From Actinocorallia herbida (GTDB lineage: Bacteria > Actinomycetota > Actinomycetes > Streptosporangiales > Streptosporangiaceae): a stretch of 64,000 bases of DNA. This document shows positions 37,552 through 58,978 of the stretch, piece by piece. Each line of letters begins with the position of its first letter. Positions within the stretch are counted from its first letter, which is position 1. The position numbers and the translations under genes were made by a program. The notes beneath the pieces were generated by a model. The model saw only the letters and a list, made by a program, of their open reading frames with translations, did no database searches and was not told the origin of the DNA. The DNA is taken from the NCBI RefSeq assembly GCF_003751225.1, contig NZ_RJKE01000001.1, positions 3,286,001 through 3,350,000 of the forward strand, written 5' to 3'.

Positions 37552-37587
37552 CGCGATGTCCTCAGAGTTGACGCGGAAGGGGTGGGG

Positions 37588-40807: not shown

Positions 40808-40823
40808 TGTAGCGATCGCTACA
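40808..40823. promoter_or_regulatory. Operator TGTAGCGATCGCTACA before the lyase/flavoprotein operon
   Basis: A perfect 16-bp palindrome directly upstream of the ribosome site of the 40792 gene. The identical sequence is at 58963-58978 and close copies are at 40930, 40954, 57486 and 57507. The size and symmetry fit a TetR-family dimer, and two TetR genes are inside the regulon (57624, 58256). Confidence 0.85.
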
Positions 40824-40919
40824 GGAGTGAACTGTGACACCAGTCACCGGTGGTTGGCAAGTGCAAGGGTGCTGATCAGAGGGCTTGTGGTCGCAGTCAC
40901 AGAAATTTCGGAAGACCTC

Positions 40920-40969
40920 TTGCACTCCCTGGAGCGATCGCTCTACTGTTCCGTGTAGTGACTGCTACA
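40920..40969 (+). promoter_or_regulatory. Promoter of the meta-cleavage operon with two operator variants
   Basis: TTGCAC (40920-40925) and TACTGT (40944-40949), 18 bp apart, form a plausible promoter. TGGAGCGATCGCTCTA (40930-40945, 13 of 16 matches to the perfect site) fills the spacer, and TGTAGTGACTGCTACA (40954-40969, 13 of 16) covers the expected transcription start. This is a textbook repression layout for the operon starting at 41026. Confidence 0.75.
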
Positions 40970-41025
40970 GAGATTCACGTCACCTTTACTTCGCCTTTCG
41001 TCTCACCCCCGAAGGACTGACGCCG

Positions 41026-42201
41026 ATGACCGTCTTGGACGAGATTCGCCGGCTCGAACCCGAGTTCCGCGCCGAGGAGGAGCTTTCGGCCGAGCAGCGC
41101 TCGCTGACCGACCGGACGTTCAAGCACATGCAGGAGACCGGCCTGATGCGCGGTCTGCTGCCCGAGCGCTGGGGCGGCGCCGAGCTCTCGCTCCGCGAAC
41201 ACCTCACGTCCGTCTACGAACTGGGCCGCGTCGCCCCGTCGGCGGGCTGGGTCGCGGGCGTCATGGGGTCCCACCCGTGGCAGCTCTCGCTCTTCCCCGA
41301 GGAGACCCAGGCCGAGATCTGGGAGGGGAACCCGGACTGGAACGCCTCCTCCTCCTACGCCCCGACCGGCAAGATCGAGCCCGTCCCCGGCGGCTACAAG
41401 GTCTCCGGCCGCTGGTCGTTCTCCTCCGGCAGCGACCACGCCCAGGGCGTCATCCTCGGCGGATTCGCCGGGAAGGTCGAGGTCGCGCCGGGCGTCGAGG
41501 TGCCGAACTACGGGTCCGCGCTGCTCTTCCGCGACGAGTACGTCATCGAGGACACCTGGCACGTGCGCGGCTCGCGCGGCACGGGCAGCAAGGACATCGT
41601 CGTCGCGGACGTCCTCATCCCCGAGCGCCGCTTCCTGTCCAGCCCGCTGTACGAGTACAACCCCGAGCGCCCCGCGCCGGGCATGCTGACCAACCCCGGC
41701 AGCCTCTACAAGCTGCCCTGGGCCGTCATGTTCAACCTGGTGCTCGTCGCGCCGATGCTCGGCCTCGGCCGCCGCTTCCTCGACGACTGGACCGCCGAGA
41801 CCAGTGTCCGCAAGGCCAACTGGGGCGGCACCTACGCCGACGACGCGCTCATGCAGATGCACCTGGCCGAGGCCGAGTGGATCCACGACGCCGCCGTCGC
41901 CAAGATGTACAACGCGATCGACACGATCACCCAGGCGGCCGAGGCCGGCGTCCATCTCGAGCGCCAGGAGCGCGCCCGGATGCGCTGGAACATCACCAAG
42001 GGCTGCCAGGAGGTCGGCTTCTCGATCAACAAGCTGATGCGGGTCGCCTCGGGCCGGACGGTCTTCGTGGACCACCCCCTGCACCGCCTCTACCAGGACG
42101 TGGTCGCCGAGCTCGGCCACGCCTTCCTCGTCTCCGACGGCTGCGGCCAGTACTACGGCGCCGCGCTTCTCGGTTCGTCCGCTCCGGAGGTCATGCTGTG
42201 A
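41026..42201 (+). CDS. Flavin-dependent monooxygenase, oxygenase subunit (HsaA-like), copy 1
   Basis: A 391-aa acyl-CoA-dehydrogenase-fold FADH2-dependent hydroxylase. Seen: MRGLLPERWGGAELSLREHLTSVYELGRVAPSAGWVAGVMGSHPWQLSLFPEETQAEIW, YKVSGRWSFSSGSDHA, WHVRGSRGTGSKDIVV and C-terminal INKLMRVASGRTVFVDHPLHRLYQDV. Relatives such as HsaA hydroxylate phenols ortho to the hydroxyl to make catechols, using flavin from a separate reductase. That reductase is probably 58993-60162, under the same operator. AAGGA lies 9 bp before the ATG. The stop overlaps the dioxygenase start. Confidence 0.9.
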   Translation: MTVLDEIRRLEPEFRAEEELSAEQRSLTDRTFKHMQETGLMRGLLPERWGGAELSLREHLTSVYELGRVAPSAGWVAGVMGSHPWQLSLFPEETQAEIWEGNPDWNASSSYAPTGKIEPVPGGYKVSGRWSFSSGSDHAQGVILGGFAGKVEVAPGVEVPNYGSALLFRDEYVIEDTWHVRGSRGTGSKDIVVADVLIPERRFLSSPLYEYNPERPAPGMLTNPGSLYKLPWAVMFNLVLVAPMLGLGRRFLDDWTAETSVRKANWGGTYADDALMQMHLAEAEWIHDAAVAKMYNAIDTITQAAEAGVHLERQERARMRWNITKGCQEVGFSINKLMRVASGRTVFVDHPLHRLYQDVVAELGHAFLVSDGCGQYYGAALLGSSAPEVML

Positions 42202-43121
42202 TTTCGCAACTCGCTTACCTGGGAATCGCGTCCCCGAAGGCCGAGGAGTGGCGTCAGTACGCCACCCGCCTGCTCGGCGCCGTCCTCGCCGAGGACGGGT
42301 CCGACGGCGCGGTCCGCGTCAAGGTCGACGACGCGGGCTACCGCATCGCCGTGCACCCGGCCGCGGAGGACGAGCTCCGCTACGTCGGCTGGGCCTGCAA
42401 CAACGAGACCGCGCTGCGGTCCTACGTCGCGGAGCTGCGGGCCAAGGGCGTCGAGCTGCACGAGGGCGACGCGGAGGTGCTCAAGGAGCGCCAGGTCGCC
42501 GAGCTGTACTGGTTCACCGACCCGTTCGGCAATCGCCACGAACTCGTCTGGGGCCAGCACTCGACCCCCAACTCGTTCTTCCCCGGACGTCCGATGCGCG
42601 GCAGGTTCGTCACCGGCGACCTGGGCCTCGGGCACGTCGTGCTGATCGTCCCCGACCTCCAGGCGGCCGACGACTTCTACGCCGCGACCCTCGGCTTCCG
42701 CCTCTCCGACCGGGTCAAGAGCGACATCTTCAACCTGCGCTTCTACCACTGCAACGGCCGCCACCACTCCCTGGCCGTCGCGGAGATCCCCGGCATGACC
42801 GGCATCAACCACCTGATGCTGGAGGTCGAGTCCTTCGACGACCTGGGCACCGCCATCGACCTGTTCACCGAGGACGCCGACCGGGAGATCCTCCTGTCCC
42901 TGGGCCGGCACACCAACGACCTGATGACCTCGATCTACGTGCAGACGCCGTCGTCGCTCCAGATCGAGTACGGCCATGGCGGCATCGCCGTCGACGACCT
43001 CACCTGGGTCGCCGGGTCGCACGACCTCCCGTCCATCTGGGGCCACCACCGCTCCCAGGCCTACATCGACGGCCCTCCCGGGATCTTCCGCGAGCTCGAA
43101 GGAACGGAGGCGGCCCAGTGA
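42198..43121 (+). CDS. Extradiol ring-cleavage dioxygenase (type I, HsaC/BphC-like)
   Basis: A 307-aa two-domain vicinal-oxygen-chelate dioxygenase. The C-terminal domain has the Fe(II) ligands His146 (GLGHVVL), His205 (GINHLMLE) and Glu257 (LQIEYGHG), plus the nearby Tyr. Length is close to BphC/HsaC (about 300). It opens a catechol beside the two hydroxyls (meta cleavage). The GTG start forms GTGA with the monooxygenase stop. It is the only ring-cleaving dioxygenase in the window, serving both monooxygenases. Confidence 0.94.
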   Translation: MISQLAYLGIASPKAEEWRQYATRLLGAVLAEDGSDGAVRVKVDDAGYRIAVHPAAEDELRYVGWACNNETALRSYVAELRAKGVELHEGDAEVLKERQVAELYWFTDPFGNRHELVWGQHSTPNSFFPGRPMRGRFVTGDLGLGHVVLIVPDLQAADDFYAATLGFRLSDRVKSDIFNLRFYHCNGRHHSLAVAEIPGMTGINHLMLEVESFDDLGTAIDLFTEDADREILLSLGRHTNDLMTSIYVQTPSSLQIEYGHGGIAVDDLTWVAGSHDLPSIWGHHRSQAYIDGPPGIFRELEGTEAAQ

Positions 43122-43963
43122 CCGCCGAACTGCGCGTCTCGGACATCGCGATCAAGGGCGGCCGCCACCTCCGGGTGAACGAGACCGGCACGCCCGGACA
43201 GCCCGCCCTGCTGTTCCTGCACGGCTCGGGCCCCGGCGTCACCGCCGCGTCCAACTGGCGCGAGGTCCTGCTCGGCCTCGGCGACACGTACCACTGCGTC
43301 GCGCCCGACATCCTCGGGTTCGGTGACTCCTCCTACCCGGACCCGCAGCCGCAGGGCTTCGCCGCCCAGGCCGAGGTCCGCATCGAGGCGCTGCTGGAGC
43401 TGGTCGACGCGCTCGGGCTGGAGAAGGTCGTGCTCGTCGGCAACTCGATGGGCGGCATGTACTCGCTGCGCATCGCCCAGCTGCGGCCCGAGCTCGTCGA
43501 CCGGATCATCCTCATGGGCTCCGGCGGCATGCCCGGCCTCGCCCCGGCCCCCGGCCTGATCAAGCTGATCACCTACTTCGACGACCCGACCGTCGAGGCG
43601 ATGGCCGATCTGCTCATCCAGTTCGTCCACGACAAGTCGGCCTTCGGGGACAAGGTCGAGGAGGTCGCGGCCGAGCGGATGCCGATCGTGCGGCGGCCGT
43701 GGATCGAGGAGGGCCACCGGGCCATGTTCGCCCCGGAGATGCTCACCTTCGCGCCGGAGGAACTCGCCGAGATCGACCTGCCGACCCTGGTCGTGCACGG
43801 CCGCCAGGACGTCATCGTGCCGATCGAGTGCAGCTACTACCTGGCGGAGAACCTGCCGCAGGCGGACCTGTACGTCATGAACAAGTGCGGCCACTGGACC
43901 CAGATCGAGCAGGCCGCGCGATTCCAGGCGATCGTCCGGGACTTCGTCCCGAGCGGCCGCTAG
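43118..43963 (+). CDS. Meta-cleavage product hydrolase (HsaD/BphD-like), copy 1
   Basis: A 281-aa alpha/beta hydrolase. Catalytic triad Ser110 (GNSMGG), Asp231 (HGRQDVIV), His259 (CGHWTQIE); oxyanion region LFLHGSGPGVTAASNWREVL, typical of BphD/HsaD/MhpC. It hydrolyses the C-C bond of the 2-hydroxy-6-oxo-dienoate made by the dioxygenase. GTG start overlaps the dioxygenase stop (GTGA). Confidence 0.92.
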   Translation: MTAELRVSDIAIKGGRHLRVNETGTPGQPALLFLHGSGPGVTAASNWREVLLGLGDTYHCVAPDILGFGDSSYPDPQPQGFAAQAEVRIEALLELVDALGLEKVVLVGNSMGGMYSLRIAQLRPELVDRIILMGSGGMPGLAPAPGLIKLITYFDDPTVEAMADLLIQFVHDKSAFGDKVEEVAAERMPIVRRPWIEEGHRAMFAPEMLTFAPEELAEIDLPTLVVHGRQDVIVPIECSYYLAENLPQADLYVMNKCGHWTQIEQAARFQAIVRDFVPSGR

Positions 43964-43978
43964 AGGGGGAACCGACAC

Positions 43979-45154
43979 ATGAGCATGATCGACAAGGCGA
44001 GGGCGGCGGCGCCGACCCTCGCCGCGGCCGACGCCGAAGGCGCGGCCCAGGGCCGCCTCACCGACGAGGCGGTCGCGGCGCTCGACTCGATCGGGGTGCT
44101 CCGCGCCCTCCAGCCCGCCCGCTGGGGCGGCGGCGAGGTCCACCTCACCGAGTACGCCGAGACCGTCATCGAGATCGGCCGCAGCTCGGCCTCCGCCGGC
44201 TGGGTGGCGTCGGTGGTCGGCGTGCACCCGTGGCAGATCGCCCTCTTCCCCGAGGAGACGCAGACCGAGATCTGGGGCGAGGACCCGGCGCGCAAGATCG
44301 CCTCCTCCTACACCCCGACCGGCAGGATCGAGAAGGTCCCCGGCGGCTACCAGGTCTCCGGCCGCTGGAGCTTCTCCTCCGGATCCGGCATCTGTGACGG
44401 CGTCATCCTCGGCGGCATCGCCGGACGCCGCGAGGTGAACGGCGTCGAGTACCCCGACTTCACCTCGGTGATCCTCGACCGCGCGGACTACCGGATCGAG
44501 GAGACCTGGAACGTCGCGGGCCTGCGCGGGACCGGGTCGAACGACATCGTCGTCGACGGCGTCTTCGTGCCCGAGCACCGCGGCCAGTCGCACGTCCTCT
44601 ACACGCACGGCCTCGGCACCCCGCTGCCCGGCCAGGAGCTCAACGACGGCCCCCTCTACCGGACGCCCTGGGCGGTCACCTTCAACCTGATCATCGCGGC
44701 CGGGGCCGTCGGCGCGTCGCTCGGCTTCTACGACCAGTGGGTCGCCGAGACCCGCGCCCGCCGCACCAACTACGGCCAGCTCCTCCGCGAGGAGCACCTC
44801 GTGCAGAACCACCTCGCCGAGGCCGCCTGGCAGCTCGACGCGGCGGTGCTCAAGGTCAAGCGCGCGGCGGACGAGCTGATGGAGGCCGCCTCCCGGCACG
44901 AGATCCCCTCCCTGGAGCAGCGCGCCTTCTGGCGCTGGGACGTCGCCCGCGCGGCGAACGGCGCCACCGACGCCGTCCAGGAGCTGATGCGGGTCTCCTC
45001 GGGCCGCGCGGCCTTCGTCGACCACCCGCTCCAGACCAGGTTCCAGGACGCGATCAGCGCGAGCAGCCACGCCTTCCTGTTCGACGACCCGCTGGCCAAG
45101 GCCTGGGCCGGGCGCCATCTCGGCGCCGAGAAGCTCGAGGCGGTGCACCTGTGA
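43979..45154 (+). CDS. Flavin-dependent monooxygenase, oxygenase subunit (HsaA-like), copy 2
   Basis: A 391-aa paralogue of the product of 41026 with the same length and shared blocks: LQPARWGGGEVHLTEYAETVIEIGRSSASAGWVASVVGVHPWQIALFPEETQTEIW, YQVSGRWSFSSGSGICDG, WNVAGLRGTGSNDIVVDG and VQELMRVSSGRAAFVDHPLQTRFQDA. Together with the hydrolase that follows it repeats the monooxygenase-hydrolase order of the first half of the operon, but without a second dioxygenase. It probably hydroxylates a later or alternative phenolic intermediate. GAGGGGGAACC precedes the ATG. Confidence 0.9.
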   Translation: MSMIDKARAAAPTLAAADAEGAAQGRLTDEAVAALDSIGVLRALQPARWGGGEVHLTEYAETVIEIGRSSASAGWVASVVGVHPWQIALFPEETQTEIWGEDPARKIASSYTPTGRIEKVPGGYQVSGRWSFSSGSGICDGVILGGIAGRREVNGVEYPDFTSVILDRADYRIEETWNVAGLRGTGSNDIVVDGVFVPEHRGQSHVLYTHGLGTPLPGQELNDGPLYRTPWAVTFNLIIAAGAVGASLGFYDQWVAETRARRTNYGQLLREEHLVQNHLAEAAWQLDAAVLKVKRAADELMEAASRHEIPSLEQRAFWRWDVARAANGATDAVQELMRVSSGRAAFVDHPLQTRFQDAISASSHAFLFDDPLAKAWAGRHLGAEKLEAVHL

Positions 45155-46011
45155 GCGCCCTGATCACCTCCGGCGACGTCACGGTCTCCGTCCGCGGCGA
45201 GTCGCTGACGTTCCGCCTGCACGAGAGCGGCGAGCGGAACTCCGAGGCCGTGCTGTTCCTGCACGGCTCGGGCCCCGGCGCGACCGGGCTGTCGAACTGG
45301 GAACGGGTCATCGCCGACCTCGGGCACCGGTTCTGGTGCCTCGCGCCCGACCAGATCGGGTTCGGCGACTCCGCCCACCCGCTCGACGCCCCGCGCGGCA
45401 TGGGCCCGTTCAACGAACTGCGCGCCGAGGCGCTGCTGGCGCTGGTCGACGCGCTGGGCCTGACCAAGGTCCACCTGGTCGGCAACTCGATGGGCGGGCA
45501 GCTCGCGCTCCTGATGACGCTGGCCCGTCCCGAGCTGGTCGGGAAGATCCTGCTCATGGGCAGCGGGGGAGCGCCGGGGATGCCGGTCAGCCCGGGTCTC
45601 ACCCACCTGCGCGAGTTCTACGCCGATCCTTCCGCCGCGTCGCTGGAAGGCCTCCTCACGGAGTTCGTGTACGACCTCGAACCGCTGCGCGGCACCGTCG
45701 ACCGGGTCGTCAAGGAGCGGATGTCCTACGTGACCCGCGAGGACGTCCGCCGCTCCCACGAGGCGTCCTTCGACCCGCAGGGCGCGCGCCGCTTCTTCAC
45801 CCCCGAGGAACTGGCGACCGTCACCCACGAGGTGCTGTGCGTGCACGGCCGCGACGACCGCATCATCCCGGTCGACGCGAGCCGGTACTTCGCCGACAAC
45901 CTCCCCAACGCCGACCTCTACGTCCTCGCCCAGTGCGGCCACTGGACCCAGATCGAGCACCCCGAGAAGTTCGAGACGCTCCTCCTGGCCCTCGTCGACG
46001 GACGCATCTAA
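45151..46011 (+). CDS. Meta-cleavage product hydrolase-like alpha/beta hydrolase, copy 2
   Basis: A 286-aa paralogue of the product of 43118. Triad Ser113 (GNSMGG), Asp236 (HGRDDRII), His264 (CGHWTQIE); LFLHGSGPGATGLSNWERVI near the N-terminus. GTG 45151 overlaps the monooxygenase stop. It may act on a second ring-fission product or have diverged to an ester/diketone substrate. Confidence 0.9.
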   Translation: MSALITSGDVTVSVRGESLTFRLHESGERNSEAVLFLHGSGPGATGLSNWERVIADLGHRFWCLAPDQIGFGDSAHPLDAPRGMGPFNELRAEALLALVDALGLTKVHLVGNSMGGQLALLMTLARPELVGKILLMGSGGAPGMPVSPGLTHLREFYADPSAASLEGLLTEFVYDLEPLRGTVDRVVKERMSYVTREDVRRSHEASFDPQGARRFFTPEELATVTHEVLCVHGRDDRIIPVDASRYFADNLPNADLYVLAQCGHWTQIEHPEKFETLLLALVDGRI

Positions 46012-46024
46012 AGGAACCCGCACC

Positions 46025-46867
46025 ATGCGCATCGCCAATCACGCGGGCCGCGCCGTCCTGGTCCTCTCGGACGACAAGGCCGCGGACATCGCCACGGCCT
46101 CCCGCGGCCTGTTCAGCCCCCGGATCCAGGGCGTCTACGACCGCTGGGCCGAGTTCACGGCCTGGGCCGCGACCGCAGACCCCGTCGCGGACGTGGACCT
46201 CGACAAGGCCCGGCTCGGCTCGCCTTCGCCGACCCCTTCCCAGGTCGTCGCCATCGGCCTGAACTACGCCGACCACGCCGCGGAGACGGGCTTCGAACCG
46301 CCGAAGGACCTTCCGCCGGTCTTCACCAAGTTCGCCTCGTCGATCACGGGTCCCTACGGCGACATCGCCCTCCCCGAGGGCGGCCACACCGACTGGGAGG
46401 TCGAGGTCGTCGCGGTCATCGGCAAGAAGGCCCACAAGGTCCCCGAATCCGACGCCTGGTCCTATGTCGCGGGCCTGACCGTCGGCCAGGACCTCTCCGA
46501 ACGCATCCTCCAGTTCGTGGGCCAGGCCCCCCAGTTCGGCTTCGCCAAGTCCTACCCGGGCTTCGCCCCCATCGGCCCCTGGCTCACCACCCTGGACGAC
46601 GTCCCCGACAAGGACGACCTGGCCCTCGGCTGCTCCATCGACGGCGAGACCGTCCAGGACGGCCGCACCTCAAAACTGATCTTCTCCATCCCGAAGACCA
46701 TCGCCGAACTCACCGAAGTCATCACCCTTCACCCCGGCGACGTCATCTTCACCGGCACCCCCGACGGCGTGGGCCTGGGCATGACCCCCCAGCGCTTCCT
46801 CCAGCCGGGCGAAACCCTCCGCACCTGGGTCGAGGGCCTGGGCGAGATGACCCACACCTTCCACTGA
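46025..46867 (+). CDS. Fumarylacetoacetate hydrolase (FAH) family protein
   Basis: A 280-aa FAH-fold enzyme. VVAIGLNYADHAAETGFEPPKDLPPVFTKFASSITGPYGDI and HTDWEVEVVAVIGKKAHKV carry the metal-binding Glu/Asp pattern (ExE). The C-terminal ITLHPGDVIFTGTPDGVGLG closes the family signature. Members hydrolyse beta-diketo/acylpyruvate acids or hydrate/decarboxylate dienoates. As last gene of the operon it likely splits an acylpyruvate-like product, replacing the usual hydratase/aldolase route. AAGGAAC precedes the ATG, and a large hairpin follows. Confidence 0.9.
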   Translation: MRIANHAGRAVLVLSDDKAADIATASRGLFSPRIQGVYDRWAEFTAWAATADPVADVDLDKARLGSPSPTPSQVVAIGLNYADHAAETGFEPPKDLPPVFTKFASSITGPYGDIALPEGGHTDWEVEVVAVIGKKAHKVPESDAWSYVAGLTVGQDLSERILQFVGQAPQFGFAKSYPGFAPIGPWLTTLDDVPDKDDLALGCSIDGETVQDGRTSKLIFSIPKTIAELTEVITLHPGDVIFTGTPDGVGLGMTPQRFLQPGETLRTWVEGLGEMTHTFH

Positions 46868-47188
46868 GAACCTCCGCACGACCCGGGCCCCGGGGCGCCC
46901 TGCCCCGGGGGCCGGGTCGGGCGCGGTCGAGGAAGCGCTGGAGCCGGGAGGACGGAGAGGAGCGGGCCGCGGGGACTTGGGGGAGGGGGCGCGGGATGGA
47001 CGGTGCTGCGCGCTCACCATGCGCGCCACTGTCCCTGCGCGGGAGCCGGAAGCGACGGCTGTGCGGGGAATCTCCCCGACCGGGAGAGACCGATCGCCCT
47101 GTGGCCACCGCCCACCGACGGTGGCCACGGCGCGAGCACCGCTGCCGACGGCGGCCTTCGACGACGAGGGCGCAGGCCCCTCGGGCGG
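46868..47188. other. Gene-free region between convergent FAH and phosphatase genes
   Basis: These 321 bp hold the terminator at 46880-46918 and otherwise GC-rich sequence. Several open frames cross it on both strands, but none has a ribosome site or a protein-like composition, so I call no gene here. Confidence 0.55.
46880..46918. terminator. Large hairpin terminator of the meta-cleavage operon
   Basis: GACCCGGGCCCCGGGGC (46880-46896) pairs with GCCCCGGGGGCCGGGTC (46902-46918): 17-bp stem, one mismatch, 5-base loop, 13 bp after the FAH stop. Confidence 0.78.
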
Positions 47189-48256
47189 TCAGCCGACCAG
47201 GAGGGCGGCCTTGAGGTGCTTCAGTTCGGCGGCGGTGAGGCCGAGGCCGTCCTTCTCGTAGGCGGGGAAGGTGCCGAAGGTCTCTTTGACCTGGTCGAAG
47301 CCGGCGTTGAGATAGGCGGGGCGGACGTCCAGGAGGGGCTTGTAGACCTTCGCCAGGAACGGGGGAAGGGCGTCGAGGGTCGAGGCGTTGGCGGCGGCGC
47401 GGTAGTCGTTGCTGGCGAGGTAGTCGCGCATGATCGTGGCGCGGGGGACGCCGAGCGCGGTGAGCAGCGCGGCGGCGGCCCAGCCGGTGCGGTCCTTGCC
47501 CGCGGTGCAGTGGAAGAGGACGGCGTGGGAGCCGGTGCCGGCCAGGCCGTCGAAGACGCTGGTGTAGGCGGCTCGGCCGCTGTCGGAGGCGACCATGGCC
47601 CGCTCACCGTCGATCATCATCTGCTCGGCGGCCTGCTCGCTCGTCGGCAGGGTGTAGCCGGAGCCGCCGCCGGACACGTCAGCGATCACGAGGCGGATGC
47701 CGGAGGGCAGCTTGTCACGGCCGAGGGCGCGCTCGAAGCCGGTGCGCAGGTCGTAGGCGAGTTCGATGCCGAGGCGCTTCAGTTTCGCCTGGTCTGCGGT
47801 GGTGAGCTTGTTGAGCGCGTCGGTCCGGTAGACCTTGCCCATGCGCACCCACTTGCCGTTCTTGGTCCGGTAGCCGCCGGCGTCGCGGAAGTTGACGGTG
47901 CCGGAGAGCCGCACGAGGCGGTCGGCGAGGTGCAGCGAGCCGCCGTGGTCGGGGACGAGGGAGAACCACCGGCGGTCGGCGGCGGGCAGGCCCCGCACGG
48001 TGACGGTCGCGGCGCCGTCGCCGCGGGCCACTGTCCTGCCGACCGCCTTGACGGCCACGCGCTTCACCCCGGGGGCCTTCCAGGAGACGGTGAACGAGCC
48101 GTCGTCGTTGGCCGTGACGGTGGCCGCGGTGAAGGGGATGCGCGCGGCGCGGAGGTCCTGGGGGAGTCGAGGGGCGGCGAGCGCGCCGGTGGCGACGCCG
48201 TCGAGGATGAGGACGGCCACGGTCAGGGTCGATGCGGCCGATGCCAGGTTCTTCAT
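47189..48256 (-). CDS. Secreted tyrosine-phosphatase-family protein
   Basis: A 355-aa exported dual-specificity/tyrosine phosphatase of the bacterial (IphP/LipA-like) type. Signal peptide to about residue 27 (STLTVAVLILDGVATGALAA). A short beta domain (about 35-105; FTAATVTANDDGSFTVSWKAPGVKRVAVKAVG, fibronectin-like) precedes the catalytic domain: SGTVNFRDAGGYRT, the general-acid region, and the P-loop HCTAGKDRTG with Cys250. Substrate unknown: phosphoprotein, phosphoinositide or sugar phosphate. It is 105 bp downstream of a Ser/Thr kinase on the same strand. ATG 48256 starts the signal peptide. Confidence 0.87.
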   Translation of the reverse strand: MKNLASAASTLTVAVLILDGVATGALAAPRLPQDLRAARIPFTAATVTANDDGSFTVSWKAPGVKRVAVKAVGRTVARGDGAATVTVRGLPAADRRWFSLVPDHGGSLHLADRLVRLSGTVNFRDAGGYRTKNGKWVRMGKVYRTDALNKLTTADQAKLKRLGIELAYDLRTGFERALGRDKLPSGIRLVIADVSGGGSGYTLPTSEQAAEQMMIDGERAMVASDSGRAAYTSVFDGLAGTGSHAVLFHCTAGKDRTGWAAAALLTALGVPRATIMRDYLASNDYRAAANASTLDALPPFLAKVYKPLLDVRPAYLNAGFDQVKETFGTFPAYEKDGLGLTAAELKHLKAALLVG

Positions 48257-48309
48257 GGGTGGGAAGGTTCCTCTCGGCGGATGAGACGACGGGGAACTCG
48301 CGTCCACGG

Positions 48310-48330
48310 GATCTTAAATGTTGGAAGATC
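48310..48330 (-). promoter_or_regulatory. Inverted repeat before the phosphatase gene
   Basis: GATCTT (48310-48315), 9 bp, AAGATC (48325-48330) in the 105-bp gap between kinase and phosphatase. This AT-rich patch is a candidate promoter or operator for the phosphatase alone. Confidence 0.4.
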
Positions 48331-48361
48331 TCCAGAAAATAGCCGTTATGCGAAGGGCGGG

Positions 48362-51036: not shown

Positions 51037-51135
51037 ACCGCGGGCACGGGAGGACGCCGACGAGCTCCGGCGCGGTGCGCGATCATTCCCGCGGATCGCC
51101 ATGAACCCGGGTGAAGCGCCGGATAGGTTGGGCCG

Positions 51136-51891: not shown

Positions 51892-52558
51892 GGGAGAGGA
51901 TGCCGGGCAGGTCGGTGAGGGTGGTGACGAGGTCGGTGAGGGGGCGGCGGCCCTGGACGAGGAGGGCCACGGTGACCCGGGCGTGGGGGTCGGGGGAGCG
52001 GTCCACGTCGGTCTGGGTGACGGAGTAGCCCAGGTCGCTGCAACTGACGAGGACGTCGCGCAGGACGCCGTTGCCGGGGGCGTAGGTGAAGGTGACGCGG
52101 TGGGCGGGCCGGGTGCCGAGGGACAGGCGGCGGGTGAGCCGGTCAAGGCCGAGGACGATGACGAAGTGGCCGACCGTGACCGCGACGGCCAGCACGGGAA
52201 GGCCCGCCCCGCAGGCCATTCCCACAGCGGCCGTCACCCAGACGACGGCGGCGGTGGTCAGGCCGCGGACGGCGTCGCGCCGGACGAAGATGAGGCCGCC
52301 GCCGATGAATCCGATCCCGGACACGATCTGCGACGCCACCCGGGACGGGTCGAGCGACGCGTTCTCGTCCGAGACCGCGGAGAACCCGTAGATCGACACC
52401 AGCATGAACAGCGCGGAACCGACGCCGACCAGCGTGTGGGTGCGCAGGCCCGCGCTCTTGTTGCGCAGCCCCCGCTCCAGCCCGATCGACGCCGACAGCA
52501 GCAGCGCCAGCCCGAGCTCGCCGAGCTGCGCCCAGCCCTGCCCGGGACTCAGTACCAT
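51866..52558 (-). CDS. MgtC/SapB family membrane protein
   Basis: A 230-aa protein. The N-terminal MgtC block ALLLSASIGLERGLRNKSAGLRTHTLVGVGSALFMLVSIYGF and SQIVSGIGFIGGGLIFVRRDAVRGLTTAAVVWVTAAVGMACG give about five helices; a C-terminal ACT-like cytoplasmic domain starts near 150. MgtC-like proteins support growth in low magnesium or acid and inhibit ATP synthase in some bacteria. AGGAAAGGCGG precedes the ATG. No magnesium-sensing leader was recognised upstream. Confidence 0.9.
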   Translation of the reverse strand: MVLSPGQGWAQLGELGLALLLSASIGLERGLRNKSAGLRTHTLVGVGSALFMLVSIYGFSAVSDENASLDPSRVASQIVSGIGFIGGGLIFVRRDAVRGLTTAAVVWVTAAVGMACGAGLPVLAVAVTVGHFVIVLGLDRLTRRLSLGTRPAHRVTFTYAPGNGVLRDVLVSCSDLGYSVTQTDVDRSPDPHARVTVALLVQGRRPLTDLVTTLTDLPGILSLTTADEDD

Positions 52559-52622
52559 CCGCCTTTCCTATCACTCAGGTAGGTTTTTCCGGAAGTCTCG
52601 GAAAGGTGGAAAAATGCTGACT

Positions 52623-52663
52623 CCCGCGCCGGGCCCGCTCCGGTGGGAGCGACCCGGCGCGGG
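52623..52663 (-). terminator. Two-tier hairpin terminator of the Liv-type ABC operon
   Basis: Outer arms CCCGCGCCGGG (52623-52633) and CCCGGCGCGGG (52653-52663) pair perfectly; inside, CGCTCC (52636-52641) and GGAGCG (52646-52651) close a GGTG loop. It lies 15 bp beyond the stop of the last ABC gene on the minus strand. Confidence 0.78.
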
Positions 52664-52678
52664 CGTCCGCGGTCCGGG

Positions 52679-53416
<738 letters not shown>

Positions 53417-53427
53417 CGTGTCTCCCC

Positions 53428-55122
53428 TTACTGGGCGCCGAAGTAGGCCTCGGCCAGGCGTGCGGACCCGGTCAGGTCGGCGATGGTGCCGGACGCGGTG
53501 ATCTCGCCGAGTTCCATGAAGTAGGTGTGGTCGGCGAGCTCGCGGACGACGTCGAGGTTGTGCTCGACGAGGCAGACGGTGCGGCCTTCGGCGCGGACGG
53601 CGGCGACCATCTCCAGCATGGTGCCGACCCAGGTGGCGTCGACGCCGGAGGCGGGCTCGTCCAGGAGCAGGACGTCGCCGCGGGTGGCCAGCGCCCGAGC
53701 CAGGGACACGAGCTTCGACTGCCCGTAGGACAGGGCGTCGGCGGGAGTGGCCGCCTGGTCGGCGAGCCCGACGAAGTCGAGCCATTCCATCGCCTCGGCG
53801 GCCACCTCGCGGTCGGCGCGCCCGACACCGGGCGTGCACAGCCGGCCGATCCTCTCCCCGGCCTGGTCCGGCACGGCGAGCATGACGTTCTCCAGGCACG
53901 TCAGCCGGTTGAGCAGCCGGACGTCCTGGAAGGTGCGCACCAGCCCGGCCCGGACGATCCGGTCAGGCCGCATGCCGACGAGCTCCACGCCGTTCAGCAG
54001 CACCGACCCGGTGTCGGCGACGACGGTGCCGGTGAGCAGGTTGAACGCGGTGGTCTTCCCGGCCCCGTTCGGTCCGACGAGCGCGGTGATGGTGCCGCGC
54101 CGCAGTTCAAGGCTGATGTCCTTGGCCGCGGTGATGCCCCCGAACCGCTTCGACAGCCCCTCGGCCCGCAGCACCACCTCGGCGTCCGCGTAGGCCGCGG
54201 GCGGCGCGACCCGGTCCGCGACGACCGCGCGCGGCCTGTCCCCGGGGGAGGGCGGCGCGACCCGGCGGAACCGTTCGGCGAACAGCCCCTGCGGCCGGAC
54301 GATCATGACGAGCACCAGCAGCACCCCGTACAGGACGAGCTGGAGCAGCGCCGCCTGCGAGCTCTGCACGCCGAGCCCCTCGCGCAGCGCGGGCTCGATC
54401 ATGGTGAGCACGACGCCCGCGACGACCGAGCCGAGCAGGTTGGCGTTGCCGCCGACGATCACCATCGCGAACACCGCCATGGCCAGCGGGAAGCCGAACG
54501 CCGACGGGGTCGCCTGGCCGAGCCAGCCCGAGTACAGGCCGCCGATGAGCCCCGCGAGACCACTGGTGATCGCGAAGACGCCGATCTTGTAGCCGAAGGT
54601 GTTCTTGCCCAGCGCGCGGGTGGCGACGGTGTCCTCGCGGACGCCCTTGAGCACCCGTCCGTAGGGCGACTCGCCGAGCCGCCAGCAGACGGCGAAGACC
54701 AGCACGAGGACGAGCGCCGACGGGATCAGCCAGTCGCGCGGCCCGTCGAGCTCCAGTCCGAACAGGCTCAGCCCGTCGACGCCGGTGAGGCCCATGACGC
54801 CGCCGAGGGAGTCGAAGGTGGCGAAGATGCCGATGACCGCCAGCGAGAACGCCAGCGTCATGAGGATGAGGAACTCCTCGGGCAGGCCGAGCGCGATCAG
54901 TCCGACGACGACCCCGAAGGCCGTCGCGAGGACGATGGCGACGCCGAGCGCCGCGGCGTAGGGCCAGCCGTGCACCCCGGCGAGGAAGCAGATGGTGTAA
55001 CCGCCGATGCCCGCGAAGGCGGCATGCGCGACGGAGACCTGCCCGGCGTAGCCGACGAGCAGGTTGACGGTGACGGCGAGCGCCGCGAGGAGCAGCGCCT
55101 GGTCGAGGTAGTTGATCCACAT
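53428..55122 (-). CDS. LivM-LivG fusion: ABC permease with C-terminal ATPase
   Basis: A 564-aa fusion. Residues 1-290 are a LivM-type permease (LLVGYAGQVSVAHAAFAGIGGYT, YGRVLKGVREDTVATRALGKNTFGYKIGVFAITSGLAGLIGGLYSG). Residues about 320-560 are a LivG-type ATPase (VGPNGAGKTTAFNLLTG, VRTFQDVRLLNRLTCLENVMLA, LSYGQSKLVSLARALA, LLLDEPASGVD, CLVEHNLDVV). The linker is short and rich in Pro/Ala/Arg. In Escherichia coli these are separate genes; the single chain here fixes their 1:1 ratio. It starts 4 bp after the LivH stop. Confidence 0.92.
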   Translation of the reverse strand: MWINYLDQALLLAALAVTVNLLVGYAGQVSVAHAAFAGIGGYTICFLAGVHGWPYAAALGVAIVLATAFGVVVGLIALGLPEEFLILMTLAFSLAVIGIFATFDSLGGVMGLTGVDGLSLFGLELDGPRDWLIPSALVLVLVFAVCWRLGESPYGRVLKGVREDTVATRALGKNTFGYKIGVFAITSGLAGLIGGLYSGWLGQATPSAFGFPLAMAVFAMVIVGGNANLLGSVVAGVVLTMIEPALREGLGVQSSQAALLQLVLYGVLLVLVMIVRPQGLFAERFRRVAPPSPGDRPRAVVADRVAPPAAYADAEVVLRAEGLSKRFGGITAAKDISLELRRGTITALVGPNGAGKTTAFNLLTGTVVADTGSVLLNGVELVGMRPDRIVRAGLVRTFQDVRLLNRLTCLENVMLAVPDQAGERIGRLCTPGVGRADREVAAEAMEWLDFVGLADQAATPADALSYGQSKLVSLARALATRGDVLLLDEPASGVDATWVGTMLEMVAAVRAEGRTVCLVEHNLDVVRELADHTYFMELGEITASGTIADLTGSARLAEAYFGAQ

Positions 55123-55126
55123 GGCG

Positions 55127-56050
55127 TCAGGCCTTCTGGAGCGAGGCGGGTCGGAGGGGCCGGAGCCGGGGCATACGGCCCTTCCCGGCGAGGAACGCGA
55201 GGTAGACGGCGAGCACGGTGAAGACCGCGGTCTGCGCCCACTGCACCGACAGCCAGATCGACGCCCACTGCTCCAGCAGCCCGAGCCCGATGCCGACGGG
55301 CAGGGCGCGCAGCGGCGAGGTGCGGGTGCCGGCGAGGAACGCGACGACGAAGCCGTAGATGACCGTCGAGTCGCCCATCGTCGGCTGGACGGTGTAGAGC
55401 AGGCCGTACCAGAGCGCGCACGCGCCGGAGACGAGCCCGGCGATCGCGAAGCACGCGAGGTTCACCCGGCGCACGCTGATCCCGAGCACGCCCGCGAGCC
55501 CGGGGTTGCTGCGGACCGCCTTGACCGAGCGGCCGAGCGGCGTGAACGCCAGGAAGGCGGCGAGGCCGAGCACGAGCACCAGCCCGGTGCCGGCGAGGCC
55601 GAGCTCGAACGTCGAGATCCGCACGGGGCCGAGGTCGAGCAGGACGACGTCGGGCCCGTAGAACGGCAGGCTGCTGGTGCCCAGCCACAGTTGCAGCAGC
55701 GCGATGCCCGCGGTGCTGACGCCGAGCGAGGTGACCAGCACGGCCAGCATCGAGCGGTCTCCGGCGCGCCGGGCGACGGGCTCATAGACACCGAGCTCGA
55801 GCAGGACGCTCACCACGACGGCCGTGGCGAGCCCGGTGAGGGCCGCGGGCCAGAACGGCATGCCGAGCGCGTCCATGACCCAGTAGGCGGCGTAAGGGGC
55901 GACGGTGTAGGTGAGCGCGTAGGCGAAGTGGAAACGCGTGGTGACCCCGATGACCAGCGCGAGGCCCGCGCCGAGTGCGGCGTAGAACGCGCCCCGGGTC
56001 AGGCCGTTGGCGGTCAGCTGCCAGAGGTCGGCGTCTAGCAGGTCGTGCAT
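55127..56050 (-). CDS. Branched-chain amino acid-type ABC permease (LivH-like)
   Basis: A 307-aa inner-membrane permease with about eight helices. GLTRGAFYAALGAGLALVIGVTTRFHFAYALTYTVAPYAAYWV and FTPLGRSVKAVRSNPGLAGVLGISVRRVNLACFAIAGLVSGACALWYGLL are LivH family blocks. CCGGAGGATCC puts a ribosome site 4 bp before ATG 56050; the frame is open to 56119 but that part overlaps the 5' side untypically. Forms the channel with the LivM half of the fusion. Confidence 0.9.
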   Translation of the reverse strand: MHDLLDADLWQLTANGLTRGAFYAALGAGLALVIGVTTRFHFAYALTYTVAPYAAYWVMDALGMPFWPAALTGLATAVVVSVLLELGVYEPVARRAGDRSMLAVLVTSLGVSTAGIALLQLWLGTSSLPFYGPDVVLLDLGPVRISTFELGLAGTGLVLVLGLAAFLAFTPLGRSVKAVRSNPGLAGVLGISVRRVNLACFAIAGLVSGACALWYGLLYTVQPTMGDSTVIYGFVVAFLAGTRTSPLRALPVGIGLGLLEQWASIWLSVQWAQTAVFTVLAVYLAFLAGKGRMPRLRPLRPASLQKA

Positions 56051-56115
56051 GGATCCTCCGGAACCGAGGGATGGGGGACGGCTCGTACGGCCGTCCCCCG
56101 GACTGCAGATGCGCG

Positions 56116-57423
56116 TCATTCCGCGAGGCGGAAGTCCTTCGCGCCGACGTCGTAGGTGGCCAGCGGGGTGACCTTGCCGGCCTTGTACTCGAAGACGCCC
56201 ATCGGACGGTGCGCGACCCCGTGCGTCTTCAGGTCGATCTCCAGGGCGCCGACGGTGGCGTCGTCACCGCCGTAGACCGAGGCGAACTTCGGGTCCTTCT
56301 CCAGCGCGGCCTTGAGCTGGGCGCTGTCGGTCGCGTCGCCGCCCGCGGCGGTGACGCGACGGATCAGGTCCCACACCATGAGGGTCTCCTCGTAGGCGTT
56401 GGCCGCGTAGAAGTCGGGCTCGGCGTCGTAGGCCTTGCGGTAGGCGTCGACGAACAGCTTCGCCAGCGGGTTGGCCGGGGTGGCGGCGTCGAAGTAGTCC
56501 ATGGCGAACTTGAAGCCGTCGCTGTCGAACGCGCCCTTGGAGGCCTTGGTCGCCTCGTCGGTGAACTCGATGCCGAGGAGCTCGCTGCCGATGCCCGCGG
56601 TCTTGGCCTGGGCGGCGAACGCGCCGGGGGCGGCGCCGCCGAAGGCGACCCAGAGGAGGTCGGGCTCGTTCTTCTCGACCTTGGCGATCACGCTCGCGTA
56701 GTCCTGCGAGGTCGGCGCGACCGTCTCCCACAGGCCGTTGAAGGTGAGGCCCGCGGCTTCGATCTTCGCCTTCACGTCGGCCTGGATGGCCTGGTTGAGC
56801 GGGCCGAGGTCGACGCCGACGAGGCCGACGGTCTTGCCTTCGGGGTGGGCCTGCTTGAACCACTCCAGGGCCCCGGGGACGGCGTCGGACGGGGCGACCT
56901 CGCGGGTGCCGTAGAAGTACTCGGTGCCCTGGGTGAAGACCTGGGCGCCGCCCACGCCGTCGAGGCTGAGGATCTTGTCCTTGTCGGTGTCGGCGAGCAT
57001 CGAGCCGAGGCCGTCGCCCATCGAGGTGATCTTCGCGGGGACGCCTTCGGCGGCGAGCTCCGACGCGGCCTGCTTGGCCGCGACGGGGTCGGGGCCCTTG
57101 ATGTCCTTGACGCTGAGCTGCAGGGCGGGGCCTCCTGCGGCCTTGATCTGCTCGATCGCGAGCTCGATGGCGTTCTGCATCGAGGCGCCGTTGGCGGCGG
57201 ACGCGCCCGAGAGGGTGAGCGCCGCACCGAGCTTGAACTGGACGTCGGCGCCGAGGTCGCCGTCGATGCCGAGGATCTGCACCAGGTCGGCGGCCTGGCT
57301 CTTGGCGTCCGCCTCGCTGACGCCGGAGTCGGCCGATCCGCAGGCGGTGAGGGCGAGTGCCGTGGTGACGGCGAGGACGGGGGCGATCAGCCGCCGAAGG
57401 GAGGTGCTGCGTGGGGTGGGCAT
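56116..57423 (-). CDS. ABC transporter substrate-binding lipoprotein (LivJ-like, periplasmic-binding type 1)
   Basis: A 435-aa extracellular receptor. Lipobox LTAC with Cys28. The mature domain has FKLGAALTLSGASAANGASMQNAIELAIEQIKAAGGPALQLSVKDIKGPDPVAAKQAASELAAEGVPAKITS and further ligand-domain strands such as KTVGLVGVDLGPLNQAIQADV. It binds the solute for the LivH/LivMG/LivF importer. GGAGAAGGAAAT precedes ATG 57423. Two operator copies lie 63-99 bp upstream, putting importer expression under the same control as the catabolic operons. Confidence 0.92.
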   Translation of the reverse strand: MPTPRSTSLRRLIAPVLAVTTALALTACGSADSGVSEADAKSQAADLVQILGIDGDLGADVQFKLGAALTLSGASAANGASMQNAIELAIEQIKAAGGPALQLSVKDIKGPDPVAAKQAASELAAEGVPAKITSMGDGLGSMLADTDKDKILSLDGVGGAQVFTQGTEYFYGTREVAPSDAVPGALEWFKQAHPEGKTVGLVGVDLGPLNQAIQADVKAKIEAAGLTFNGLWETVAPTSQDYASVIAKVEKNEPDLLWVAFGGAAPGAFAAQAKTAGIGSELLGIEFTDEATKASKGAFDSDGFKFAMDYFDAATPANPLAKLFVDAYRKAYDAEPDFYAANAYEETLMVWDLIRRVTAAGGDATDSAQLKAALEKDPKFASVYGGDDATVGALEIDLKTHGVAHRPMGVFEYKAGKVTPLATYDVGAKDFRLAE

Positions 57424-57446
57424 ATTTCCTTCTCCGTTTCGCTGAC

Positions 57447-57463: not shown

Positions 57464-57485
57464 CCAGGAACCAAGCACGCGAGTC

Positions 57486-57522
57486 CGTATTGATCGCTAC
57501 AGTGATTGGAGCGATCGCTACA
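57486..57522. promoter_or_regulatory. Two operator copies between importer and TetR genes
   Basis: CGTATTGATCGCTACA (57486-57501, 13 of 16) and TGGAGCGATCGCTACA (57507-57522, 15 of 16) match the palindrome TGTAGCGATCGCTACA. Their centres are exactly 21 bp, two helical turns, apart, so two dimers could bind on one face. They lie between the divergent importer and TetR operons and could control both. Confidence 0.8.
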
Positions 57523-57623
57523 GGGACGCGGCTGTGACGGTACCCAGAATGTGACCGCTGACACAAGCCCTGATGGGGTCGAGTTTCTGGCGGTCGGTTC
57601 GGGAGGCACGGGAGTATGGGCAG

Positions 57624-58259
57624 ATGAGGAAGACGACGCGACGCCACCAGCAGGGCGAGGAATCGAGGCTGCGGATCCTGGAGGCGACCCTCGCCATAGC
57701 CGCGGAGCGGGGGTACGACGGCACGTCGATCGCTCTGGTGACCGAGGCCACGGGGCTGCCCGCGAGCTCGGTCTACTGGCATTTCCGCAACAAGGACGAG
57801 CTGCTGGCGGAGACCCTCGAGTACAGCTACCGGCGCTGGCGGGAGACCGCCCCGACCTGGCGGGACCGGGTCGGCATCGCCGACCCGGCCGAGGAGGTGC
57901 GCGACCGGCTCCAGCGGGCGTCGCGCGCGATCGTCGAGAGCCCCGAGTTCTGGCGGCTCGGCCTCATGCTCGGCCTGCTGAACCGGCAGCACGTCCCGGC
58001 CGCGCGGCTGCGCTACCTGGAGGTCCGCGAGGAGACCAGGCTCGCGATCCAGCAGTGGTGGGAGCAGATCCTCCCGGGCGGTGATCCCGCGGCGCGGCGC
58101 GACGTGGCGGGCCGGGTGGCCCGGTTCCACCTGTCCGTCATGGACGGGCTCTACCTGGGCGTCCGCTCCGACCGGGGCTGGAAGCTCGACCGGCTCGTCG
58201 ATCTGATCGCCGCGGGCGTCCACGCGCAGGCCGTGAGCTGGCTGGAGGAGGCCGCGTGA
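57624..58259 (+). CDS. TetR family transcriptional regulator (first of a coupled pair)
   Basis: A 211-aa TetR-type repressor. The helix-turn-helix is IAAERGYDGTSIALVTEATGLPASSVYWHFRNKDELLAETLEYSYRRW (about 25-72); the rest is the helical ligand/dimer domain. The ATG at 57624 follows GGGAG at 9 bp; an in-frame ATG at 57573 is possible. Its stop overlaps the second TetR start as GTGA. The best guess is that it binds the TGTAGCGATCGCTACA sites beside it and releases them on binding a pathway compound or CoA ester. Confidence 0.9.
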   Translation: MRKTTRRHQQGEESRLRILEATLAIAAERGYDGTSIALVTEATGLPASSVYWHFRNKDELLAETLEYSYRRWRETAPTWRDRVGIADPAEEVRDRLQRASRAIVESPEFWRLGLMLGLLNRQHVPAARLRYLEVREETRLAIQQWWEQILPGGDPAARRDVAGRVARFHLSVMDGLYLGVRSDRGWKLDRLVDLIAAGVHAQAVSWLEEAA

Positions 58260-58888
58260 GCACCAAGGAGAAGCCCGGACCGCAGTCCGCCGACCGCGAG
58301 GTGTCGCGCATCCGCATCGTCCGGGCGGCCGCGGAGATCGCCGCGGAGAGCGGCTACGAGGCCACCACGATCTCGAAGGTCACCAAGCGGTCCGGGCTGC
58401 CCGCCAGCTCGGTCTACTGGTTCTTCCGGGACAAGGACCACCTGATGGCCGAGGTCGTCCGGCACAGCTTCGAGCAGTGGATCTCCAGCCAGCCGCGCTG
58501 GGAGCGTGACCCGCGCGACGAGCGCTCGCCGACCGAGGGGCTGCGCGCGATCCTCTCGCGGTCGGTGCGCTCCCTGGTCGACTCGCCCGACTTCGTGCGG
58601 ATCGGCCTGATGCTGCTGCTGGAGACCCGGGACGTCGAGCCCGAGGCGCGCCAGTACTTCCTGGCCACCCGTGACGAGGTGACCAGCAGCATCGCGGCCT
58701 GGTTCACCTCGTACTTCGACACCGCGCTCCGGGCCCGCCGGCCGGAGCTGGCGATGGACCTCGCCCGGGTCGTGCTCGCCGCCACCGACGGGTTCTTCTT
58801 CTCCCGGCAGATTCACGACGACCTGGATCCGGAGGACGTCGTGGCGATCGTGGTGGCCGTCGTCGAGCAGGCGATGGCGGGGGAGTGA
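58256..58888 (+). CDS. TetR family transcriptional regulator (second of a coupled pair)
   Basis: A 210-aa TetR protein with IAAESGYEATTISKVTKRSGLPASSVYWFFRDKDHLMAEVVRHSFEQW as DNA-binding part. The recognition helix region SGLPASSVYWFF is nearly the same as in the first protein (TGLPASSVYWHF), so both may read the same operator; the C-terminal domains differ more. Translational coupling (GTGA) would give equal amounts and could favour a heterodimer. Confidence 0.9.
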   Translation: MSTKEKPGPQSADREVSRIRIVRAAAEIAAESGYEATTISKVTKRSGLPASSVYWFFRDKDHLMAEVVRHSFEQWISSQPRWERDPRDERSPTEGLRAILSRSVRSLVDSPDFVRIGLMLLLETRDVEPEARQYFLATRDEVTSSIAAWFTSYFDTALRARRPELAMDLARVVLAATDGFFFSRQIHDDLDPEDVVAIVVAVVEQAMAGE

Positions 58889-58962
58889 CCGGGTTTTCGG
58901 CCCGCTGTTCGGGTTTTCAGTGAGGAGACGGTTGTCACAGTGGGGTCTTGCGTGGCAAGCTC

Positions 58963-58978
58963 TGTAGCGATCGCTACA
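58963..58978. promoter_or_regulatory. Operator TGTAGCGATCGCTACA before the flavin reductase
   Basis: A perfect copy (with flanks CTG...CAG an 18-bp palindrome, 58962-58979), ending 14 bp before the ATG and directly before the GGGAGGAG ribosome site, just as at 40808-40823. A small dyad CTTGC-GTG-GCAAG lies at 58947-58959, and TTGTCA at 58932 may be part of the promoter. Confidence 0.85.

What the first reader, a model, noticed from the sequence alone, without database searches (positions are those of the whole stretch)
40808..58978. A shared palindrome TGTAGCGATCGCTACA links units 18 kb apart into one regulon
Perfect copies stand at 40808-40823 (before the lyase/flavoprotein operon) and 58963-58978 (before the flavin reductase). 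Variants with 13-15 of 16 matches are at 40930-40945, 40954-40969, 57486-57501 and 57507-57522. Each cluster lies in a promoter or directly before a ribosome site, and the two sites before the ABC receptor are spaced by exactly two helical turns. Two TetR genes lie inside the set. Importer, reductase, oxygenases and dehydrogenases are thus probably expressed together.
Basis: partly seen in the sequence, partly recalled or inferred. Interest (0 to 1): 0.85.

Follow-up and report, generated by a model that had tools for sequence, protein, structure and literature searches.

The report
Shared switch for a degradation pathway
A soil bacterium carries the same 16-letter DNA signal in front of four neighbouring groups of genes for taking up and breaking down an unidentified, probably ring-shaped compound, and related bacteria keep such signals in the same places beside the same two regulator genes, so the groups are very probably switched on together; the kind of switch is ordinary, but the paired and sometimes fused regulators are unusual.

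Summary
All six sites are at the stated places. In the 9.8-Mb genome every copy with at most 2 mismatches (3 of 3) lies in this cluster; at 3 mismatches 6 of 11 do, against 9 for the reversed control. One local regulon under TetR control is well supported. In 13 of 13 loci of other genera (11 Actinomadura, 2 Nocardioides) the TetR pair 57624/58256 is adjacent and sites stand before the flavin reductase and the first TetR; the 21-bp tandem spacing recurs in 11 of 13. Distant clusters with one TetR1-type gene keep much of the pathway and the core TGTARY-N4-RYTACA. The 18-kb distance is incidental: one Actinomadura has the halves about 70 bp apart. The palindrome class also stands beside other TetR genes, so it is not unique to this pair, and site 40930 is not kept in relatives. 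TetR1 and TetR2 match the N and C halves of natural double-TetR proteins, one predicted to fold like Mce3R. A heterodimer is plausible, unproven. Binding, inducer and substrate are untested.

The parts
40808..40823 (.). operator 1, perfect palindrome, directly before the ribosome site of the minus-strand lyase/flavoprotein operon
   Evidence: same place in 4 of 4 Actinomadura loci that cover it, there as TGTAGTGATTACTACA, 3 mismatches
40930..40945 (.). operator 2, degenerate (3 mismatches), inside the spacer of the inferred oxyA1 promoter
   Evidence: not found at 4 mismatches or better in any of the 5 relatives that cover it, so the weakest of the six
40954..40969 (.). operator 3 (3 mismatches; exact core match), just downstream of the inferred -10 of oxyA1
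   Evidence: 3-4 mismatches in 4 of 5 relatives
40920..40949 (+). inferred oxyA1 promoter TTGCAC-N18-TACTGT
   Evidence: my reading of the alignment, where TTGC and TAC-GT are kept; the consensus scan found no promoter here
57486..57501 (.). operator 4, livK-side member of a tandem pair 21 bp apart
57507..57522 (.). operator 5 (1 mismatch), in the region between livK and tetR1, which are divergent
58963..58978 (.). operator 6, perfect palindrome, directly before the ribosome site of the flavin reductase
   Evidence: 13 of 13 related loci have it with 0-2 mismatches
57624..58259 (+). TetR1, TetR-family regulator, likely reader of the operators
   Evidence: PF00440 E 5.7e-14; homologues beside the same operators
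58256..58888 (+). TetR2, TetR-family regulator overlapping the end of TetR1, 39-42% identical to it
   Evidence: PF00440 E 8.5e-12; identity
58993..60162 (+). HsaB-like flavin reductase with a C-terminal IclR_C domain
   Evidence: PF01613 and PF01614; NCBIfam HsaB below cut-off
39791..40792 (-). PEP mutase/methylisocitrate-lyase-like protein, first gene of the minus-strand operon
33349..39794 (-). rest of that operon: FAD flavoprotein, SDR, isochorismatase-like, FAD flavoprotein, Asp/Glu racemase-like, FAD flavoprotein
   Evidence: same order in relatives
41026..46867 (+). oxygenase operon: HsaA-like monooxygenase, extradiol dioxygenase, alpha/beta hydrolase, second HsaA-like monooxygenase, second hydrolase, FAH-family protein
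   Evidence: same order in Actinomadura
52679..57423 (-). Liv-type ABC importer LivF, LivM-LivG fusion, LivH, LivK
   Evidence: ORFs; LivK (below cut-offs); LivF, LivMG and LivH named from their sequence, not scanned; 78-85% orthologues

Best explanation
The six palindromes are operators of one local regulon. The TetR-family proteins encoded at 57624 and 58256 bind them through near-identical recognition helices. They shut four transcription units in the absence of an inducer: the lyase/flavoprotein operon, the oxygenase operon, the Liv-type importer (with the regulator genes themselves on the divergent side) and the flavin reductase. An inducer, probably the imported compound or an early pathway intermediate, would release them, so that import, ring hydroxylation, extradiol cleavage and downstream steps are switched on together. 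Shown: the sites, their confinement to this cluster, their conserved placement and the conserved linkage to these TetR genes. Inferred: binding, repression rather than activation, the inducer, and the TetR1-TetR2 assembly; I put a heterodimer at about 0.4.
For: Sites and genome-wide confinement. Footprints: mean identity to the window in sites against flanks is 0.79/0.52, 0.86/0.57 and 0.96/0.64 in the three intergenic regions (gaps count as differences, and one of five relatives covers only part of the first region). In 13 of 13 loci with TetR1 at least 58% identical, TetR2 follows and sites stand before the flavin reductase (0-2 mismatches) and before TetR1. Up to 3 mismatches these loci hold 34 sites, 31 of them at these two places, against 0 for the reversed control over 248,544 bp. 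In the family, 6 of 6 genomes with a 79-83% TetR1 orthologue hold a site with at most 1 mismatch, against 29 of 290 others. Six distant TetR1 genomes: exact core 12, control 0, over 125,001 bp, at least one in each genome; in five of them most pathway genes stand in one block.
Against: No binding or expression data. The operator class is not specific to this pair: 20 of 29 family loci that hold a copy with at most 1 mismatch have some TetR gene within 1.5 kb; 3 of the 20 are orthologues of this pair, 17 are not. Another TetR of this genome could read the sites; one search found none as close to TetR1 besides TetR2, but it scored only 7 of 233 candidates (10). Site 40930 is not kept at 4 mismatches or better in 5 of 5 relatives. 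The five single-TetR blocks lack matches to the importer and the FAH protein. A Nocardioides locus (L143) keeps the tandem sites without a Liv match beside them. The double-TetR loci examined have no such site. Of six further loci with TetR1 at 39-47%, two (L146, a 4-kb contig, and L150) have none. No promoter passed the consensus scan in the two regions tested.
Confidence: 0.83

Rival explanations
1. TetR1 alone reads the operators as an ordinary homodimer; TetR2 is a second homodimer with the same half-site that responds to another ligand, or a spare copy.
For: Five genomes run a related pathway block with a single TetR1-type gene and the same core operators. The sites show no fixed asymmetry: TGTAGTGATCGCTACA and TGTAGCGATCACTACA both occur before the reductase.
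Against: TetR2 is adjacent to TetR1 in 13 of 13 close loci, and seven matches to fused TetR1-TetR2-type proteins exist in 4 of 17 genomes of another family, which favours a joint function.
Confidence: 0.45
2. The proteins activate rather than repress, or the sites mainly serve a different TetR-type regulator of the genome.
For: The palindrome class occurs beside many other TetR genes in the family.
Against: Sites 40808 and 58963 sit next to the ribosome sites, and 40930/40954 overlap or follow the inferred -10, which suits repression. The sites follow this TetR pair across genera.
Confidence: 0.1
3. The palindrome is a chance or repeat-like element without regulatory role.
For: None found beyond its small size and the loss of site 40930 in relatives.
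Against: Shuffles (mean 0.09 against 6), confinement to the cluster, footprint conservation and 34 against 0 in the control.
Confidence: 0.02

Closest known systems
Mce3R of Mycobacterium tuberculosis (PMC11667970; PDB 9b7y)
   Same: Two TetR domains working as one autoregulated repressor of metabolic and transport genes (outline, abstract and passages seen). Relatives of the window pair are fused in the same N-C order, and the model of one fusion has Mce3R as its top PDB match over 435 columns (TM 0.58 by query, 0.64 by target).
   Different: In the window the two are separate genes. Their recognition stretches are nearly identical and the operators are near-perfect 16-bp palindromes, whereas Mce3R binds two 25-bp asymmetric sequences (abstract). 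Sequence identity in the structural match is only 18%.
KstR/KstR2 TetR regulons with the HsaACDB steroid pathway
   Same: TetR repressors over HsaA/B/C/D-like enzymes (recalled) with palindromic operators (stated in a passage of PMC4482099).
   Different: TetR1 and TetR2 score 30-32 bits against the KstR cut-off of 280; the enzymes miss the HsaA-D cut-offs. The KstR operator letters differ (recalled, not tested).
   Same: TetR1/TetR2-like proteins (36-47%). 11 of 16 loci hold at least one copy of the palindrome with at most 3 mismatches; 7 hold two, 20 bp apart in 6 of the 7; 14 of 16 have hydrolase and dioxygenase relatives nearby.
   Different: Other pathway content; 5 of 16 loci have no such site; only weak single matches to Liv genes.

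Membership tests
TetR family of transcriptional regulators | N-terminal TetR helix-turn-helix domain (PF00440) | tested here: met
   TetR1 E 5.7e-14, TetR2 E 8.5e-12, both above the gathering score
TetR family of transcriptional regulators | binds a short palindromic operator near its own gene | not testable with these tools
   palindromes stand in the livK-tetR1 region and are conserved, but no binding assay was possible
Mce3R-type double TetR repressor | two TetR domains in one polypeptide | tested here: not met
   two overlapping genes in different frames in the window. Met in relatives G395, G558, G651, G654
Mce3R-type double TetR repressor | single-chain omega fold with two recognition helices | tested here: inconclusive
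   the model of the fused relative L128:1468-2781 is confident (pLDDT 90.7, pTM 0.89) and its top match is 9b7y; not tested for the separate window proteins
Mce3R-type double TetR repressor | asymmetric, non-palindromic 25-bp operator | tested here: not met
   the window's sites are perfect or near-perfect palindromes
KstR/KstR2 cholesterol regulators | NCBIfam KstR equivalog cut-off (280 bits) | tested here: not met
   29.8 and 32.4 bits
HsaACDB steroid ring-cleavage pathway | NCBIfam HsaA, HsaB, HsaC and HsaD equivalog cut-offs | tested here: not met
   HsaA 280 and 313 of 450, HsaB 184.5 of 230, HsaC 240 of 450, HsaD 151 and 169 of 400 bits: same enzyme kinds, not the same pathway by these models

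The most novel reading that the evidence does not exclude
TetR1 and TetR2 are the split form of a Mce3R-like regulator: a heterodimer of two anciently diverged TetR paralogues with the same recognition stretch but different ligand halves. It reads a symmetric operator while sensing with an asymmetric pocket, so that one switch could answer to two signals or to a bulky unsymmetrical inducer. In another family the pair has been fused into one chain.
Probability: 0.4. Interest if true: 0.62.

Novelty: new member of a known kind. Interest (0 to 1): 0.45.

Why it matters
It ties an importer, two HsaA-like monooxygenases, an extradiol dioxygenase and a lyase/flavoprotein operon into one pathway of unknown substrate, and it gives a ready induction readout for finding that substrate. 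It also offers a series (single TetR, adjacent pair, fused pair) in which the origin of double TetR repressors such as Mce3R can be tested. The core TGTARY-N4-RYTACA can help to annotate a class of actinobacterial TetR regulators.

Tried and rejected
Rejected: a TetR1-TetR2 fusion in G130 (suggested by the 436-aa open frame). One search showed that this frame is TetR1 with an upstream extension, while TetR2 lies in another frame.

Rejected: the 31438-32796 permease as a regulon member. It lies 552 bp beyond the last flavoprotein gene, and no relative of it was listed after FAD1 in L057 or L073, where the stretch continues.

Rejected as specific to the pair: the palindrome itself.

Weakened: the idea that the tandem sites decay when livK is lost. 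G208 (KC345) has one site before TetR1 and no Liv match in the stretches fetched, but Nocardioides L143 keeps two sites without a Liv match.

Led nowhere: searches for a paper on this pathway or regulator type (2,657 papers, 15 listed; 270 papers, 15 listed; 2 papers; 21 papers, 8 listed, two opened by passages: 0 papers). Searches (3 papers; 11 papers, 10 listed) led to the Mce3R paper (abstract, passages, one section), to PMC4482099 and to PMC6768106 (passages of each). The substrate stays unknown. Letters of the operator: 0 papers for the 16-mer, the 14-mer TAGCGATCGCTACA and the 12-mer TAGCGATCGCTA; (three variant 12-mers and two 9-mers) gave 214 papers, and none of the 40 listed held a 12-mer.

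Left out of counts: loci L152-L167 (weak matches) were not examined; one search left out L058, L060, L061, L065, L066, L071, L072, L074, L075 and L077; the tree holds a chosen 39 of the TetR sequences. The fifth protein was given in a wrong frame (no family found) and was given rightly. Not done: a structure job for the separate TetR1 or TetR2 (1 of 2 jobs used).
Full report
What was checked. In the whole 9.8-Mb genome the three matches with at most 2 mismatches all lie in this cluster. At 3 mismatches 6 of 11 do, against 9 for the reversed pattern, so the remaining five are about what chance gives. Two degenerate forms, TGTARYGATCRYTACA with up to 2 mismatches (5 of 5 in the cluster, control 2) and the exact core TGTARYNNNNRYTACA (3 of 3, control 0), likewise find nothing elsewhere.

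Anatomy. Two sites are perfect and stand immediately before the ribosome sites of the lyase gene (minus strand) and of the flavin reductase. Two lie 24 bp apart before the first monooxygenase. In an alignment with five Actinomadura loci (one cut off at a contig end) the elements TTGCNY-N18-TACNGT are kept there, with one site in the spacer and one just after the -10. That promoter is my reading of the alignment; the consensus scan did not report it. Two lie 21 bp apart between livK and tetR1, which are divergent. The units are: a seven-gene lyase/flavoprotein operon (33349-40792); a six-gene operon with two HsaA-like monooxygenases, an extradiol dioxygenase, two hydrolases and an FAH-family protein (41026-46867); a Liv-type importer (52679-57423); TetR1-TetR2 (57624-58888); and a flavin reductase with a C-terminal IclR_C domain (58993-60162).

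Conservation. A search of 297 genomes of the family for copies with at most 1 mismatch found 36 genomes, the window's own included. A search of the same 297 for TetR1 found six genomes, besides the window's own, with an orthologue of 79-83% identity, and six more at 44-46%. All six of the first group are among the 36, against 29 of the other 290. Reading these loci shows the same units with sites in the same places. Mean identity to the window is 0.79 inside sites against 0.52 outside (lyase-oxygenase region), 0.86 against 0.57 (livK-tetR1) and 0.96 against 0.64 (before the reductase). The sites are not kept equally: the 40808 equivalent has 3 mismatches in 4 of 4 loci that cover it, the 40954 equivalent 3-4 mismatches in 4 of 5, and the 40930 equivalent was not found at 4 mismatches or better in any of 5. 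A scan of named genomes returned 35 loci, of which I examined 19. Thirteen have TetR1 at least 58% identical: 11 Actinomadura and 2 Nocardioides. In 13 of 13 TetR2 follows TetR1, a site with 0-2 mismatches precedes the reductase, and at least one site precedes TetR1. A tandem pair 21 bp apart, each member with at most 4 mismatches, stands in 11 of 13; one Nocardioides has 32 bp, and one Actinomadura (KC345) has a single site. Up to 3 mismatches the 13 loci hold 34 sites and the reversed control none in 248,544 bp; three of the 34 lie elsewhere (L135, L136, L137). Of the other six loci examined (TetR1 39-47%), four hold a site with at most 3 mismatches and two do not.

The 18-kb distance. In G246 (contig length equal to that of A. 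latina) the importer and the oxygenase operon end about 70 bp apart. Four other Actinomadura loci have about 2 to 8 kb between them, and the window has 5.8 kb of other genes there (46868-52678), which I did not compare with relatives. The sites are thus the two ends of what is a compact cluster in at least one relative.

Deeper relatives. Five genomes (G023, G067, G197, G228, G237) have a single TetR1-type gene beside a block of the monooxygenases, dioxygenase, a hydrolase, the reductase and the lyase/flavoprotein genes. The stretch of G023 ends inside the SDR gene, so its lyase and first flavoprotein were not seen. No match to the importer or to the FAH protein was listed in these stretches. 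With G057, which has an adjacent TetR pair, their loci hold 12 exact core sites, control 0, in 125,001 bp; G228 has one exact and one with a single mismatch. In the class-wide search 19 of 394 genomes, the window's own included, had a TetR1 relative. In 16 fetched loci of genera g71 and g85, 14 have hydrolase and extradiol-dioxygenase relatives nearby and 11 have the palindrome with at most 3 mismatches; in all there were 18 sites, control 1, in 302,521 bp.

Limits on specificity. Of 29 family loci fetched for a copy with at most 1 mismatch (one per genome; six further genomes and the window's own not counted), 20 have a TetR gene within 1.5 kb, 3 of them orthologues of this pair, against 0 of 5 chance loci in the window's own genome. 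Fourteen of the 29 have an SDR gene related to the window's. The palindrome is therefore a class of TetR operator; the pair in the window is probably one of its readers.

The two regulators. TetR1 and TetR2 are 39-42% identical and share the stretch GLPASSVYW. Two genomes of another family (f38) code for single proteins whose N half is 46-49% identical to TetR1 and whose C half is 44-48% identical to TetR2. A search of 17 genomes of f38 found seven such matches in four genomes; one runs to a contig end and was not seen whole. In a tree of 39 chosen sequences TetR1 groups with the N halves (98/96), while the C halves and TetR2 fall outside that group; several branches are long and the TetR2 side is not resolved. 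AlphaFold2 gives one fusion a confident fold (pLDDT 90.7, pTM 0.89). Its best PDB match is Mce3R, 9b7y, over 435 columns with TM 0.58/0.64 and 18% identity; the other 49 hits listed cover about one half. Mce3R is described as a double TetR repressor with a single ligand-binding domain that binds asymmetric 25-bp sites (abstract and passages of PMC11667970). The fused proteins examined have no copy of the palindrome nearby, so they do not show what the pair reads. The single-TetR blocks suggest that a TetR1-type protein can suffice. I therefore hold the heterodimer at about 0.4.

Mechanism, with steps marked. Shown: sites, confinement, placement, linkage. Inferred: repression (sites cover or follow the inferred promoters), release by a substrate or intermediate, co-expression, heterodimer. 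The substrate is unknown. The HsaA/B/C/D-like enzymes miss the cut-offs of the steroid pathway. The flavoproteins and SDR resemble ring-dehydrogenating enzymes among many others, all below cut-offs, so ring dehydrogenation followed by hydroxylation and extradiol cleavage is a guess.

Novelty. The kind is known: a TetR regulon with palindromic operators over a catabolic cluster. The full operator letters were found in no paper of the library searched (variants), which does not include most subscription journals. The paired, sometimes fused regulators make it more than routine.

Noticed in passing
40833-40848, 40886-40901, 57550-57565: CRP/GlxR-like motifs (TGTGAN6TCACA, consensus recalled) with 1 mismatch stand in the same two intergenic regions: 3 of the 4 such matches in the window, expected 0.48, with 1 of 100 shuffles reaching 4. 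A motif with 1 mismatch stands in the livK-tetR1 region of 9 of 11 related loci examined; in the lyase-oxygenase region of five loci it is mostly at 2 mismatches or absent. A second, catabolite-type input is possible.
   Followed up: partly
58993-60162: The flavin reductase carries an IclR_C domain and is 389 aa here, 386 and 393 aa in two Nocardioides loci, but only 166-171 aa in 11 Actinomadura loci, so the possible sensor domain was gained or lost.
   Followed up: partly
L109:9000-11710, L128:44-2781: Two double-TetR genes lie in tandem in each of two genomes of family f38.
   Followed up: partly
L012-L040 (family loci): The same palindrome class stands near other TetR genes and SDR genes in many genomes of the family; these regulators and their targets were not studied.
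   Followed up: partly
L149:15248-20605 (Nocardioides ferulae): The lyase/flavoprotein module is 70-89% identical here beside more distant oxygenase genes, so it may be a movable pathway module.
   Followed up: no
60313-60954 and 60992-62296: A third TetR gene, divergent from an MFS transporter gene, lies just beyond the reductase; no palindrome with at most 3 mismatches stands there.
   Followed up: no
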